This document shows, piece by piece, positions 1-10,338 of a stretch of DNA of 11,869 nt. Below the pieces are notes generated by a model, which had not been told where the DNA came from, ran no database searches, and was given only the letters and a program-made list of their open reading frames with translations. Within the stretch, counting starts at the first letter, position 1. Every line of letters starts with the position of its first letter. Made by a program: the position numbers and the translations under genes. The stretch is taken from NCBI GenBank assembly GCA_035288405.1, contig DATEAK010000028.1:1-11869 (forward strand), given 5' to 3'. The DNA is from JACPSX01 sp035288405 [NCBI: bacterium] (lineage in GTDB: Bacteria; JACPSX01).

Positions 1-546
1 AAGAATATCCGCATAGGTATTCACCAGGTCCACCTCTTCGGGGTTCATCACCTCGGTGATGATCGGCAAGCCCGTCTCTTCCCGCGCTTCCGCCAACAGC
101 CGCAGTCCTTCTTCGGCCATCCCCTGGAACGCATAGGGAGAGGTGCGGGGCTTGAAGGCCCCTCCTCGCAAAATGTGGGCCCCATGGGCCTTCACGATTC
201 GGGCTGTTTCCAGAAGCTGCTCGCGGCTCTCCACCGAGCAGGGTCCCGCGATCACGACCACTTCGGGTCCCCCGATTTTCACGCCTCCCACGGAAATCAC
301 GGTGTCTTCCGACTTGAACTGGCGGCTCCCCAGCTTGTAGGGCTTCAGAATGGGAACCACGCTCTCTACACCGGGCATGGAAATGAGAGCTTGCAGCTGG
401 GCCTTGCCCCGCTCATCCCCCACGGCACCGATGACCGTCTTTTCGACTCCCCAGATTACATGTGTGTTATATCCCATGGCCTGCACCCGGCCGATGACTT
501 CATCAACCTGCGCACTTGTCGACTTGCCTTTCATAACGATGATCAT
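1..546 (-). CDS. aroF: DAHP synthase, type I-beta (3' end cut by window edge)
   Basis: Cytoplasmic 3-deoxy-D-arabino-heptulosonate-7-phosphate synthase. It condenses phosphoenolpyruvate with erythrose 4-phosphate, the first step of the shikimate pathway. The first 182 residues are visible and the frame is open to base 1. Residues 1-70 (starting MIIVMKGK) match the small ferredoxin-like N-terminal domain of type I-beta enzymes. The barrel then begins with the hallmark GPCSVES at 101-107, where Cys103 is the expected metal ligand, and [16 protein letters not shown] at about 127-142, which binds PEP and phosphate. The ATG at 544-546 is preceded by AAGGAGG at a spacing of five bases, so the start is firm. 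It is the first structural gene behind the attenuator-like leader at 547-840, which suggests control by the supply of charged Tyr, Phe or Trp tRNA. The family identity is secure; the choice between aroF and other DAHP synthase names is conventional. Confidence 0.95.
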
Positions 547-574
547 CCCCGCCTCCTTCGTTAGCCGCTAAATG

Positions 575-614
575 AAAAACGGGCCATTCCGTTTTCTACC
601 CGGCGGCCCGTTTT
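575..614 (-). terminator. Second terminator-like hairpin in the aroF leader
   Basis: On the minus strand AAAACGGGCC (614-605) and GGCCCGTTTT (585-576) form a perfect 10-bp stem with a 19-base loop, ending in five T. Four of these T are part of the stem, so it is weaker as a terminator than the first hairpin. The loop repeats the element GGGTAGA that is also present in the first terminator (650-644), so strand 2 of the attenuator (719-711 region) could pair with it too. It may be a back-up terminator, a second attenuation step, or an mRNA-stabilising hairpin. Confidence 0.5.
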
Positions 615-620
615 ATCCAT

Positions 621-657
621 AAAAAAAGCCGCGGGTCTCGTCGTCTACCCGCGGCTT
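621..657 (-). terminator. Attenuator 3:4 intrinsic terminator
   Basis: On the minus strand AAGCCGCGGG (657-648) and CCCGCGGCTT (635-626) form a perfect 10-bp GC-rich stem, extended by one T-A pair, around a loop of about ten bases. Seven T (627-621) overlap and follow the 3' arm. It lies 18 bases after the leader-peptide stop and well before aroF, so it can only act as an attenuator for aroF. It is a strong candidate by eye. Confidence 0.85.
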
Positions 658-720
658 GTATTGAGTTTTTCTAACTAACTGTCTCTGACCTCCCCACTCA
701 ACACAGCGCCCGGGCAGACG
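642..720 (-). promoter_or_regulatory. Attenuator 2:3 antiterminator
   Basis: On the minus strand CGTCTGCCCG (720-711) pairs with CGGGTAGACG (651-642) over 10 bp with one G-U wobble. It uses the same strand as the 1:2 hairpin. It also takes four bases of the terminator's 5' arm (651-648) and part of its loop, so it excludes both other structures. This is the pairing expected to allow transcription into aroF when charged aromatic tRNAs are scarce. Confidence 0.7.
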
Positions 721-794
721 GGGGTAAAGTAAAAGTAATAAAAATACCGCCAAGGCCCTTTCTGCCCGACTTTCTCTGCAACGCTGCGCGCCAT
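675..794 (-). CDS. Aromatic-rich leader peptide of aroF (39 aa)
   Basis: A short ORF of 39 codons plus TAG. Codons 15-23 (bases 752-726) read W-R-Y-F-Y-Y-F-Y-F: four Tyr, three Phe and one Trp codon in nine. The ATG at 792-794 has GAGG six bases upstream, and an in-frame TAG lies five codons before it. Downstream is the gene for the first enzyme of aromatic amino acid synthesis. A run of codons for the end product just before a terminator hairpin is the defining mark of a ribosome-stalling leader peptide. The peptide itself probably has no function. The run is flanked by two complementary octamers (761-768 and 711-718), so a ribosome stalled here would mask the first and free the second. Confidence comes from the agreement of codon content, structure and downstream gene; translation is not shown. 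Confidence 0.85.
   Translation of the reverse strand: MARSVAEKVGQKGPWRYFYYFYFTPVCPGAVLSGEVRDS
711..768 (-). promoter_or_regulatory. Attenuator 1:2 protector hairpin
   Basis: On the minus strand CGGGCAGA (768-761, within leader codons 9-12) is perfectly complementary to TCTGCCCG (718-711). The stem is 8 bp, and the aromatic codon run lies in its loop. When formed it locks up strand 2 and leaves the terminator free to fold. A ribosome stalled on the Tyr/Phe codons would cover strand 1. Confidence 0.72.
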
Positions 795-821
795 GGGAGC
801 CCTCAACTAACCCTGATCCTG

Positions 822-850
822 TGGACGGATGAGAAACGTTGGAGTATATA
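822..850 (+). promoter_or_regulatory. Possible promoter of the aminotransferase gene
   Basis: TGGACG (822-827, four of six matches to the -35 consensus), a 17-base spacer, and TATATA (845-850). A start near 857 would give a leader of about 50 bases before the ATG at 909. The -10 lies in the same palindrome as the divergent aroF promoter, so the two probably compete or share a regulator. Weaker than the minus-strand promoter. Confidence 0.4.
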
Positions 851-855
851 TACTC
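842..855. repeat. Perfect 14-bp palindrome between divergent promoters
   Basis: GAGTATATATACTC is a perfect inverted repeat and contains the predicted -10 elements of both divergent promoters. It could be an operator for a dimeric regulator or simply the result of two overlapping AT-rich -10 boxes. No regulator is identifiable from the sequence. Confidence 0.5.
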
Positions 856-876
856 GACCCCTTCCGGGGGTGTCAA
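847..876 (-). promoter_or_regulatory. Promoter of the leader peptide-aroF transcript
   Basis: On the minus strand a perfect -35 TTGACA lies at 876-871. An 18-base spacer separates it from TATATA at 852-847, four of six matches to the -10 consensus. The predicted start at about 840 gives roughly 46 bases before the leader ATG, a sensible length for an attenuator RNA. The spacer holds CCCC and GGGG arms around GGAA. Predicted from consensus only. Confidence 0.65.
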
Positions 877-7632: not shown

Positions 7633-8502
7633 ATGAGACGACTCGATCGAAAGTTTCTGGCCATAGGTCTGGGATTCCTGCTGGCAGGCGTCTTCATGGG
7701 AGACCGAGGATTCTCGGCGGAGGGGCAAAAGGCCACCTCGAACTCTCTTCTCCTATCCACAACCACGAGCACGCAAGACACCGGCTTGCTCGACGTCCTG
7801 ATCCCACTCTTTGAAAAGAAGACCGGCTCCAAAATAAAGACGATCGCCGTCGGCAGCGGCCAGGCGCTGGCCATGGGCGCCCGCGGAGATGTGGATGTGG
7901 TTCTTGCCCATGCTCCGGATCTGGAAAAGGAGCATGAGTCCCAAGGACTCTTCGTCGATCGCCAGCTCGTCATGCACAACGACTTCGTTCTTCTGTGTCC
8001 TGCCGCGGACCCGGCGCAGATCCGGGGTCTCAAGCGCACTACGGAAGCTCTCGCCCGTATCGCGTCGAGGCAAACCCGCTTCGTCACCCGGGGGGATAAA
8101 TCCGGGACCGACCTCCTGGAAAAGAGTCTCTGGAAACAGGCGGGCATCGCGCCCAAGGGCACGTGGTACATGGAATCCGGGCAAGGAATGGGGGCCAGCC
8201 TTCTCCTGGCCTCCGAAAAACAAACCTGTATCGTAAGCGACCGCGGCACCTACCTGGCTTTCAAGAGCCGCCTGAGTCTGGACATCGTTCTTCAGGGAGA
8301 CCGCGTGCTTCTAAACATCTACCATGTGATGCAGCCCAATCCGGAGAAGTTTCCCAAAGTGAACGCAGCCGGAGGCAAAGCGTTCGTTGACTTCATGATT
8401 TCCCGCGAAGCTCAGGAGATCATCAGGCAATTCGGCAAGGAGAAGTTCGGGTCGCCACTGTTCGTCCCGGACGCCGGCAAACGCGACGAAGATTTAGGGT
8501 AG
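7633..8502 (+). CDS. tupA: Tungstate ABC transporter, substrate-binding protein
   Basis: 289 residues with a Sec signal peptide: basic start MRRLDRK, a hydrophobic core at about 9-22, and likely cleavage after FSA at residue 29. The mature protein starts the binding fold with the TupA signature TTTSTQDTGLLD (43-54), followed by VGSGQAL (73-79), RGDKSGT (153-159) and DRGTY (203-207). TupA proteins bind tungstate with very high affinity in the periplasm and pass it to TupB; molybdate binding is possible. The ATG at 7633 has TAGGAG seven bases upstream. It follows its regulator in the same operon. The stop at 8500-8502 lies just before the tupB reading frame. Tungstate preference is assigned from family motifs, not from the sequence alone. 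Confidence 0.93.
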   Translation: MRRLDRKFLAIGLGFLLAGVFMGDRGFSAEGQKATSNSLLLSTTTSTQDTGLLDVLIPLFEKKTGSKIKTIAVGSGQALAMGARGDVDVVLAHAPDLEKEHESQGLFVDRQLVMHNDFVLLCPAADPAQIRGLKRTTEALARIASRQTRFVTRGDKSGTDLLEKSLWKQAGIAPKGTWYMESGQGMGASLLLASEKQTCIVSDRGTYLAFKSRLSLDIVLQGDRVLLNIYHVMQPNPEKFPKVNAAGGKAFVDFMISREAQEIIRQFGKEKFGSPLFVPDAGKRDEDLG

Positions 8503-8507
8503 AAGCC

Positions 8508-9221
8508 ATCGACCTTCTCTGGAACGGCATACAGCAGGGTATCTCGCTCCTCCTGGGTGGAGACCCGGAGGTACTGGGAATCACTCTGCTTTCCCTGGAA
8601 ATCTCGGGGAGCGCCACAATGGCGAGCCTTCTGCTCGGCATTCCCGTGGGAATGTTTTTGGCTCTGAACCGCTTCCCCGGCCGCAAGCTCGCGGTGACAC
8701 TGGTGAACACGGGAATGGGACTCCCCCCTGTTGTAGTGGGACTTTTCATCAGCATTTTCCTGTGGCGTAGCGGCCCCCTGGGCTCCTTGGATCTTCTCTA
8801 TACCCCGGCGGCGATCTTCATCGCGCAGGTAGTCATCGCCGCTCCGATCGTCACGGGCCTCACGCTGGCTGCAATCCAGCAGATCAACCCGCGCTTCCAA
8901 CTTCAGTTGACCGCCCTGGGAGCTTCCCACTTTCAGGTTCTCGTCGAGCTATGCCGGGAAACAAGCCTGCCCCTGCTGGCGGGGGTCATGGCCGGCTTCG
9001 GCGGCGTCATCTCCGAAGTCGGAGCCTCCATGATGGTCGGGGGCAATCTAAAGGACTCCACCCGTGTGCTCACCACCGCCACCGTCCTGGAGACGAGTAA
9101 GGGAAATTTCGTGGTGGCCATCGCGCTCAGCGTCATCCTCCTCTTTCTCGCCTTCGCCGTGAACCTAGCGCTCACGCTGATCCAGCAGAAGAGACAGAGA
9201 AGTGCCTGGCCCCCTCGTTGA
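8508..9221 (+). CDS. tupB: Tungstate ABC transporter, permease; no canonical start codon
   Basis: A multi-spanning inner-membrane permease of the TupB family. It has about five hydrophobic segments and the EAA-type loop that contacts the ATPase (ALGASHFQVLVELCRETSLP). PPVVVGL and ISEVGASMMVGGN are also typical. The frame encodes a normal N-terminus (DLLWNGIQQGISLLLGGDPE) from about 8511, where TupB proteins usually read MDLL or similar. No ATG, GTG or TTG occurs in frame before 8619, and a start at 8619 would lose 37 residues and the first membrane segment. The start given here is an ATC at 8508, where the Met codon is expected, with AGGG eight bases upstream. It could be a rare start, an ATG-to-ATC mutation, or a sequence error. 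From 8508 the product is 237 residues, the usual family length. It overlaps tupC by 20 bases. Confidence 0.85.
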   Translation: MDLLWNGIQQGISLLLGGDPEVLGITLLSLEISGSATMASLLLGIPVGMFLALNRFPGRKLAVTLVNTGMGLPPVVVGLFISIFLWRSGPLGSLDLLYTPAAIFIAQVVIAAPIVTGLTLAAIQQINPRFQLQLTALGASHFQVLVELCRETSLPLLAGVMAGFGGVISEVGASMMVGGNLKDSTRVLTTATVLETSKGNFVVAIALSVILLFLAFAVNLALTLIQQKRQRSAWPPR

Positions 9222-10338
9222 GCTCCGGGACGTGGAGGTTCACTACTCCGGGGCGCGCGTCCTCTCGATCCCCCGGCTGGAACTGCAGGAAGGAGAAATC
9301 CTGACCGTCCTGGGCCCCAATGGAGCCGGGAAATCGACCCTGATGCGCATCCTGGCGTTGATCGAAGAACCGGAGTATGGCGAAGCATTTTACCGAGGGG
9401 CTGCGGTGCCGCGCGGTCCTGCGCGCCTGCCCATACGCCGGCGCTTCACCGTAATTTTTCAGGAGCCGCTGCTGGCCGACACCACCGTACTCGGCAACGT
9501 GGAGATGGGGCTGCGCTTTCGCGGCGTCCCGCGCCAGGATCGGCGCCGGCGGGTGCAACCATGGTTAGAGCGATTGGGACTTTCTTCTCTGACTCGAAGG
9601 CGCACTTCCACCCTCTCCGGCGGCGAGGCGCAGCGCACCAGCCTCGCCCGCGCCTTCGTGCTGGAGCCCGAAGTGCTTCTCCTCGACGAGCCGTTTTCCT
9701 CCCTCGATCCACCGGCCCGCGAGGAGATGCTGCTCACGCTCAAGGAGATCCTGGAGAGCACGGGCACCACGGCAGTCCTGGTGACCCACGACCGGGACGA
9801 GGCGTTCCTGCTTGGAGATCGAGTCGTCGCCCTGATCAATGGGAGAGTCGCCCAGGTGGGAGATCCGGAAGACCTGCGCCTGCGGCCTGCCAGCGGTGAG
9901 GTGGCCCGCCTGGTGGGATTCGAAAACCTGTGGTCCGCCACCGCCCTCCCCTTGCGCAGCGACGTGAGCCGGGCAGAGGTGGGAGGCCGGCAGATTCTTC
10001 TCCCCTCGATCCGGCAACCGGGGAAAGATCTGCTGCTGGGTGTGCGGGCCGAGGAGATCACTCTCCTGCGAACGGATGCCCCCGAGGCAGAAAGGAACGA
10101 GAACGAAAACCGGTTCCAGGGAAATGTCACCCGGGTCATCCCGAAAGGGCCGCTCCTGTGGATCGAGGTCGATTGCGGATTCCCTCTGGTAGGGTTTCTG
10201 TCACGAGAGGAGCTGCGCAAGGCCCCCATTCCTGGGGAAAGGATCATCGCCCGTTTCCCCGTCTCCTGCGTACGCTGTCTGCCTCCTCCCTGGCCCGAGA
10301 ATTCTCGCCGAGACCGCCTCAACGGCAAACAGGAATAG
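9202..10338 (+). CDS. tupC: Tungstate ABC transporter, ATP-binding protein
   Basis: 378 residues. The nucleotide-binding domain spans about 1-235: Walker A GPNGAGKST (38-46), Q-loop Gln87 (FQEP), signature LSGGE (138-142), Walker B VLLLDEP (158-164) and H-loop His196 (LVTHDRDEA). The remaining 140 or so residues form a C-terminal regulatory region like the TOBE/MOP-type extensions of oxyanion and other CUT-type ATPases; two segments (near LLLGVRAEEITLL and FQGNVTRVIPKGPLLWIEV) fit TOBE strands. It energises the TupB permease from the cytoplasmic side. The start is GTG at 9202, inside the end of tupB, so translation is probably coupled; the upstream site is only a weak purine run. Base composition is higher in GC than in the genes to its left. 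Confidence 0.92.
   Translation: MPGPLVELRDVEVHYSGARVLSIPRLELQEGEILTVLGPNGAGKSTLMRILALIEEPEYGEAFYRGAAVPRGPARLPIRRRFTVIFQEPLLADTTVLGNVEMGLRFRGVPRQDRRRRVQPWLERLGLSSLTRRRTSTLSGGEAQRTSLARAFVLEPEVLLLDEPFSSLDPPAREEMLLTLKEILESTGTTAVLVTHDRDEAFLLGDRVVALINGRVAQVGDPEDLRLRPASGEVARLVGFENLWSATALPLRSDVSRAEVGGRQILLPSIRQPGKDLLLGVRAEEITLLRTDAPEAERNENENRFQGNVTRVIPKGPLLWIEVDCGFPLVGFLSREELRKAPIPGERIIARFPVSCVRCLPPPWPENSRRDRLNGKQE

What the first reader, a model, noticed from the sequence alone, without database searches (positions are those of the whole stretch)
675..794. Leader peptide with WRYFYYFYF upstream of DAHP synthase
Seen: a 39-codon ORF with a ribosome site encodes eight aromatic residues in a nine-codon block, ahead of a GC-rich terminator and the gene for the first committed step of aromatic biosynthesis. 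Known: ribosome-mediated attenuators of amino acid operons use runs of codons for the regulated end product (trp, phe, his, leu). Inferred: this leader senses charged Tyr and Phe tRNA together, with one Trp codon, giving joint control of the common pathway. I do not recall a described attenuator in front of a type I-beta DAHP synthase outside classical enteric examples, so it may be a new leader family.
Basis: partly seen in the sequence, partly recalled or inferred. Interest (0 to 1): 0.87.

Follow-up and report, generated by a model that had tools for sequence, protein, structure and literature searches.

The report
Aromatic leader-peptide attenuator before aroF
A short peptide gene packed with tyrosine and phenylalanine codons sits before the first gene of aromatic amino acid synthesis and probably works as an RNA switch that turns that gene on when these amino acids run short; similar switches stand at the same place in several little-studied groups of bacteria.

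Summary
On the minus strand, window 794-675 is a 39-codon ORF with WRYFYYFYF (8 aromatics in 9 codons; 0 of 5000 shuffles), followed by two terminators and a type I-beta DAHP synthase gene. The gene on the other side is divergent. Of 77 aroF upstream regions (76 relatives and the window) a curated 24 carry an aromatic-run leader, each followed by a terminator: Rokubacteria, Nitrospinota, Tectomicrobia, Acidobacteriota, Planctomycetota, Desulfuromonadales; a 25th was seen by eye. The nearest aroF relatives lack it. Of 20 second aroF copies and 19 pheA regions none was judged to have such a leader; 2 of 16 trpE regions (both Nitrospinota) have a Trp leader of their own. In folding, a ribosome on codons 9-22 abolishes both terminators and one at codon 24 or later restores them, provided RNA cannot pair across the ribosome. 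The pairings suggest a five-segment relay; its first helix covaries in relatives. Rfam has no match. Phe/Tyr attenuation of a DAHP synthase is already known (Corynebacterium aroR-aroF), and relays are recalled from the his operon, so this is a new family of a known kind. Nothing was tested in cells.

The parts
847..876 (-). promoter-like TTGACA (876-871), 18 nt, TATATA (852-847)
   Evidence: read by eye; the scan lists no promoter here
800..804 (-). ribosome site GAGGG of the leader
   Evidence: sequence
675..794 (-). leader peptide ORF, 39 codons and stop
726..752 (-). aromatic run WRYFYYFYF, codons 15-23, presumed stalling site
   Evidence: 0 of 5000 shuffles
761..768 (-). segment 0 CGGGCAGA, can pair with segment 1 (protector hairpin)
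   Evidence: folds
697..719 (-). segment 1: GTCTGCCCG (719-711) and GTGTTGAG (704-697), inside the leader ORF just behind the run
643..665 (-). segment 2: CTCAATAC (665-658) and CGGGTAGAC (651-643), partner of segment 1 and 5' part of hairpin B
626..657 (-). terminator hairpin B (11 bp), followed by T 627-621; its 3' arm 636-628 is segment 3
575..614 (-). terminator hairpin C with T-run; 607-598 is segment 4 (GCCGCCGGGT), able to pair with segment 3; 585-576 is segment 5
552..558 (-). ribosome site AAGGAGG of aroF
   Evidence: sequence
1..546 (-). aroF, type I-beta DAHP synthase, first 182 residues (runs off the window)
   Evidence: PF00793 and PF18152

Best explanation
A ribosome-mediated transcription attenuator of aroF. 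RNA polymerase starts in the intergenic region and a ribosome translates the leader close behind it. With enough charged Tyr-, Phe- and Trp-tRNA the ribosome passes the run, covers and then leaves segment 1 (which can fold back on segment 0), hairpins B and C form and transcription stops before aroF. With too little charged Tyr- or Phe-tRNA (or Trp-tRNA) it waits on codons 15-22; segment 1 stays free, pairs with segment 2 and opens B; the released segment 3 pairs with segment 4 and opens C; aroF is transcribed. Shown here: the anatomy, its recurrence with terminators at aroF in relatives, and the coincidence of the computed switch point with the end of the run. Inferred: the transcript start, stalling, readthrough, the relay in cells and the amino acid response. 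My confidence is for the attenuator as such; for the two-terminator relay it is about 0.55.
For: Aromatic density beyond chance. 26 of 77 aroF upstream regions hold an ORF with 5 or more aromatics in 10 codons, against a mean of 1.8 (maximum 6) in 30 shuffled sets, 2 of 77 antisense, and 2.9% of 698 random stretches of the same loci. In the curated 24, a terminator lies between leader stop and aroF in 24 of 24; a terminator within 130 nt of aroF occurs in 21 of 24 against 9 of the 53 others, read off the list (recount). Ribosome scan of the window: A-site codons 9-22 give B 0.00-0.12 and C 0.00-0.01, codons 24-40 give B 0.98-0.99 and C 0.94-0.96 (mode 1). Over 24 loci the antiterminator is occupied 0.70 with the ribosome on the run and 0.40 at the stop; 15 of 24 differ by more than 0.2 that way, 0 of 24 the other way. 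Helix 1:2 in seven relatives: 9 pairs, all cells paired, 3 pairs changed on both sides; whole structure 94.7% paired (3 of 500 shuffles as high), covariation score reached by 5 of 500. Phe codons in the runs are TTT in 46 of 86, in the aroF parts in 10 of 66. The neighbour 870-2063 is divergent, so no upstream gene on this strand needs these terminators. The same gene has a T-box before it in L063 and L032.
Against: No transcript or expression data. If pairing across the ribosome is allowed (mode 2), segment 0 takes segment 1 and the terminators form with the ribosome on codons 17-22 (B 0.94-0.99, C 0.95-0.96) and are weaker at the stop codon (B 0.41-0.53, C 0.48): the opposite of the model. 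The nearest aroF relatives lack the leader. Single-locus pairing tests are weak in this GC-rich DNA: duplex energy p below 0.05 in 5 of 24, window p 0.32; ungapped helix p below 0.05 in 6 of 24 by dinucleotide shuffle (window 0.037) but 2 of 24 by synonymous shuffle (window 0.047), combined synonymous p 0.19; the native helix beats all swapped ones in 3 of 24. At equilibrium terminator C still forms in the stalled state in 8 of 10 relay-group members (0.73-1.00; not in the window and L018), and over 24 loci the terminator probability differs the expected way by more than 0.2 in only 4, the other way in 1. L018 shows no switch and L005 none of the kind expected.
Confidence: 0.85

Rival explanations
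1. A simple four-segment (trp-like) attenuator: only segment 1 against terminator B matters; hairpin C is a back-up terminator or a processing site, and the 3:4 pairing is incidental to GC-rich sequence.
For: B carries its own T-run in the window, unlike the other nine of the relay group; MAFFT aligns B of the window with the single terminator of the relatives; the longest unbroken 3:4 helix of the window is 7 bp.
Against: The stalled fold of the window opens both hairpins (C 0.00 on codons 10-22), and 3:4 complementarity of 5-10 bp recurs in all ten relay-group members examined.
Confidence: 0.35
2. The ORF encodes a working small (perhaps membrane) peptide and the hairpins are ordinary terminators or stabilisers.
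For: Aromatic-rich short peptides can be membrane peptides (general knowledge); the peptide is in frame and has a ribosome site.
Against: Outside the run the peptides differ between phyla, while run, position and terminator recur; the upstream gene is divergent.
Confidence: 0.04
3. Control of aroF is by another device: a repressor at the palindrome near the promoter-like site, or an undescribed riboswitch, and the ORF is incidental.
For: A perfect 14-nt palindrome GAGTATATATACTC at 855-842 overlaps the promoter-like site (by eye).
Against: No Rfam family reaches its threshold in the window and the weak hits are far below theirs; an incidental ORF would not recur before aroF in several lineages. 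A repressor could act in addition.
Confidence: 0.06

Closest known systems
aroR-aroF attenuator of Corynebacterium glutamicum (Neshat et al. 2014, seen only through passages of PMC11802643 and PMC4046766)
   Same: leader peptide with Phe and Tyr codons before a DAHP synthase gene; stalling raises transcription
   Different: three aromatic residues (Phe-Tyr-Phe) against a run of eight; another phylum; leader sequence and hairpins not compared here
trp and pheA leader attenuators of enterics (general knowledge; passages of PMC11802643)
   Same: codon run of the end product, alternative hairpins, terminator before the first gene
   Different: other target genes; one amino acid each; one terminator; no Rfam leader family matches
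his operon attenuator of Salmonella/E. coli (recalled, no paper seen)
   Same: chain of alternative hairpins that relays the ribosome's position to the terminator
   Different: His codons; one terminator, whereas the window has two in tandem
T-box leaders (RF00230)
   Same: read tRNA charging; found directly before aroF in L063 (E 7e-19) and L032 (E 3e-10), both below the gathering score
   Different: bind the tRNA itself, no leader peptide

Membership tests
ribosome-mediated transcription attenuator | short translated-type ORF with a run of codons for the end product of the regulated pathway | tested here: met
   translation itself not shown
ribosome-mediated transcription attenuator | intrinsic terminator between leader and first structural gene | tested here: met
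   two in the window, at least one in 24 of 24 curated loci
ribosome-mediated transcription attenuator | mutually exclusive antiterminator controlled by the ribosome's place | tested here: inconclusive
   met in folds of RNA downstream of the ribosome (mode 1), reversed if pairing across the ribosome is allowed (mode 2)
ribosome-mediated transcription attenuator | readthrough rises when the charged tRNA is scarce | not testable with these tools
   needs an experiment
his-type relay attenuator (features recalled) | chain of alternating pairings 1:2/3:4 against 2:3/4:5 | tested here: inconclusive
   complementarity present in ten members; stalled truncated transcripts show B 0.00-0.01 and 3:4 0.33-1.00 in 10 of 10, but the return of B at the stop is clear in 4, partial in 3, absent in 2 and not computed in 1
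C. glutamicum aroR-type leader | homologous leader sequence and structure | not tested
   the C. glutamicum leader was not fetched
Rfam leader families (Trp, Phe, His, Leu, Thr leaders and others) | covariance-model match at gathering score | tested here: not met
   no match in the window nor at the leaders of 17 relatives, where the 7 matches are tRNAs
T-box RF00230 | covariance-model match | tested here: not met
   no T-box among the matches for the window

The most novel reading that the evidence does not exclude
A widespread, undescribed class of aromatic leader-peptide attenuators guards the type I-beta DAHP synthase gene in at least six bacterial lineages where ribosome-mediated attenuation is hardly described, arose several times, and in the window's lineage lets one stalled ribosome open two tandem terminators through a five-segment relay.
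Probability: 0.45. Interest if true: 0.68.

Novelty: new member of a known kind. Interest (0 to 1): 0.55.

Why it matters
It would extend ribosome-mediated attenuation, which by 2010 was documented in Proteobacteria and Actinobacteria with one new case in Firmicutes (passages of PMC2965389), to several uncultured or little-studied phyla and to the entry step of aromatic synthesis, where Phe, Tyr and often Trp codons are read together. The same gene seems to be tied to tRNA charging by peptide leaders in some lineages and by T-boxes in others, a good case for how such sensors are exchanged in evolution.

Tried and rejected
Tried with little result: single-locus pairing tests, weak because the DNA is very GC-rich. 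MAFFT over the relay group misplaces the window, so the pair count uses seven relatives without the window, L006 and L008. Gene order gave no kin: only two weak protein hits of window neighbours in the 80 loci; the aroF tree leaves the window near Tectomicrobia and Nitrospinota without a supported group. No covariance model and no structure prediction were made.

Curation: of the 26 ORFs six were dropped by judgement. L012, L016, L036 and L047 have no terminator-like site before aroF; L035 and L076 do have one (-173 and -58) but L076 reads like the end of a prephenate dehydratase gene (recalled) and L035 is unclear (I suspected a tRNA; ARAGORN finds none), so L035 may be a missed case. L050, L067, L071 and L080, with 4 aromatics in 10, were added by resemblance. 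L079 is not in the counts. The Fisher test on terminators mixes two definitions and is not used.

Mended on re-checking: my first scan of trpE and pheA regions left out ORFs over 90 aa and so missed two Trp leaders at trpE, found. Rejected: riboswitch or T-box in the window; a Phe/Tyr leader at pheA (a few aromatic ORFs, among them one with 6 in 12 in L138, none followed by a terminator-like site between it and the matched domain, except possibly L123 and L137, where the ORFs lie far off or carry Trp rather than a Phe/Tyr run).

Full report
What is there. On the minus strand of the window, 794-675, lies a 39-codon ORF with the ribosome site GAGGG (804-800), MARSVAEKVGQKGPWRYFYYFYFTPVCPGAVLSGEVRDS. 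Codons 15-23 hold eight aromatic residues; 0 of 5000 shuffles reach this. Two hairpins with T-runs follow, B (657-626, T 627-621) and C (614-576), then AAGGAGG (558-552) and the aroF start at 546. The enzyme carries PF00793 and the ferredoxin-like PF18152, as type I-beta DAHP synthases do (the type is my reading of these domains). The neighbour 870-2063, an aminotransferase (PF00155), is on the plus strand, so terminators facing aroF should act on transcripts begun within this intergenic region. A promoter-like TTGACA-18-TATATA at 876-847 is seen by eye; the scan listed none.

Relatives. One scan of genome contigs with the aroF N-terminus kept the best 80 loci of more. With the window, 77 regions had at least 200 nt upstream. 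26 of 77 hold an ORF with 5 or more aromatics in 10 codons within 450 nt, against a mean of 1.8 and a maximum of 6 in 30 shuffled sets, 2 of 77 antisense, and 2.9% of 698 random stretches of the same loci. After dropping six and adding four (reasons under Tried and rejected) the curated list has 24: the window; six Rokubacteria (L005, L007, L014, L018, L037, L066); two Nitrospinota (L006, L008); one Tectomicrobia (L080); two Desulfuromonadales (L020, L030); ten Acidobacteriota (L027, L029, L050, L052, L053, L056, L060, L067, L071, L072); two Planctomycetota (L061, L073). A 25th, in L079, was seen by eye. A terminator lies between leader stop and aroF in 24 of 24. For any terminator within 450 nt the tally is 24 of 24 against 23 of 53; within 130 nt of aroF it is 21 of 24 against 9 of 53, and of those nine L079 is the missed leader and L032 and L063 have T-boxes. 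On the aroF tree the leader needs 8 changes against 20.9 in shuffles, and at least 6 by well-supported branches: it follows lineages but was gained or lost several times. The relatives nearest to the window's aroF (L001, L004, L011, L047, L031 by path; L002 by identity, 69%) have no curated leader.

Specificity. 20 of the 42 further aroF matches (E up to 1e-30) were fetched, 15 of them from leader-bearing genomes: 16 of 20 have no ORF with 4 aromatics in 10, four do (L086, L099, L101 with 4, L103 with 5) and were judged by eye not to be leaders. In 19 pheA upstream regions no Phe/Tyr leader with a terminator behind it was recognised. In 16 trpE regions, 14 show no clear leader, but two, from the Nitrospinota genomes of L006 and L008, have short ORFs SWPWRDAARFRWGGPPVVD and AWPWRSWTLFRWGGLPAIG, each followed by a strong terminator: a Trp leader of their own. 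So the Phe/Tyr leader goes with the main aroF copy, and in Nitrospinota trpE seems to have a second, Trp-coded one.

Codons. In the runs of the 24, 46 of 86 Phe codons are TTT, in the aroF parts of the same loci 10 of 66 (p 1e-6); Tyr tends the same way, 15 of 34 TAT against 21 of 78 (p 0.08).

Mechanism. RNA downstream of a ribosome placed at each codon was folded (mode 1). A-site codons 9-22: B 0.00-0.12, C 0.00-0.01; codon 23 between; codons 24-40: B 0.98-0.99, C 0.94-0.96. The run is codons 15-23, so the switch lies at its end. The stalled structure pairs segment 1 (719-697) with segment 2 (665-643) and segment 3 (636-628) with segment 4 (607-598). Untranslated RNA forms segment 0:1 and both terminators. 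If pairing across the ribosome is allowed (mode 2), segment 0 takes segment 1 and the terminators form at codons 17-22 (B 0.94-0.99, C 0.95-0.96), less at the stop (B 0.41-0.53, C 0.48), which would reverse the response; the model assumes, as attenuator models usually do, that such pairing is hindered.

The group. In ten members (window, six Rokubacteria, L080, L006, L008) the stalled transcript cut before segment 5 has B at 0.00-0.01 and 3:4 at 0.33-1.00. With the ribosome at the stop, B returns clearly in the window, L007, L037 and L066 (0.77-1.00), partly in L014, L006 and L008 (0.35-0.49), not in L005 and L018 (0.00), and was not computed for L080. At equilibrium C still forms in the stalled state in eight of the ten (0.73-1.00); it does not in the window (0.00) and L018 (0.24). 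Only the window has a T-run behind B. Over all 24 loci the antiterminator is occupied 0.70 on the run and 0.40 at the stop, 15 of 24 by more than 0.2 in the expected sense and 0 against; the terminator probability at equilibrium differs in 4 of 24 as expected and 1 against. In seven relatives helix 1:2 (9 pairs) is formed in all cells, three pairs with changes on both sides; the whole structure is 94.7% paired (3 of 500 shuffles), pairs changed on both sides 4 (10 of 500), pair types 9 (204 of 500), score 0.245 (5 of 500). In eight Acidobacteriota, an alignment without the terminator's 3' arm folds by itself into a pairing of leader GCGGC with the terminator's 5' arm; those five pairs never vary and the overall covariation term is slightly unfavourable, +0.58 kcal/mol. 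Single-locus tests are weak (figures under evidence against).

Known work. Rfam has no match. Passages of PMC11802643 and PMC4046766 describe the C. glutamicum aroR leader with Phe-Tyr-Phe before aroF. Passages of PMC1262725 report no Phe/Tyr elements in Actinobacteria in 2005; passages of PMC2965389 say that leader peptides were known from Proteobacteria and Actinobacteria and add Firmicutes. The listings of searches show no paper that by title or abstract start treats such leaders at aroF in the phyla found here; the library holds openly licensed papers only, so this is no proof. The his relay is recalled. T-boxes stand directly before aroF in L063 and L032, below the gathering score.

Verdict. 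As far as sequence can show, a ribosome-mediated attenuator: a known kind, a new family, new phyla, with a tandem-terminator relay as a plausible untested variant.

Noticed in passing
L107 (last 420 nt, minus-turned) and L112 (last 420 nt), upstream of trpE in the genomes of L006 and L008: A Trp-coded leader (SWPWRDAARFRWGGPPVVD and AWPWRSWTLFRWGGLPAIG) with a strong terminator before trpE in two Nitrospinota, apparently a trp attenuator.
   Followed up: partly
L063 3670-3875 and 2395-2642; L032 122-419: T-box leaders before the same DAHP synthase gene in a Halanaerobium and an armatimonadote; only the one at L063 2395-2642 reaches the gathering score.
   Followed up: partly
window 842-855: Perfect 14-nt palindrome GAGTATATATACTC over the promoter-like site between the two divergent genes, operator-like or chance.
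   Followed up: no
L007 1037-1080: A promoter-like TTGACG-18-TACAGT ends 12 nt before the leader ATG, so this leader may be translated from a nearly leaderless RNA.
   Followed up: no
G004:C34:21777-23599 and G022:C19:3982-5540: Two aroF copies in tandem in two Rokubacteria; the leader stands before the first one only.
   Followed up: partly
window 7633-10338: Tungstate-type ABC transporter genes (TupA-like binding protein and permease by NCBIfam).
   Followed up: no
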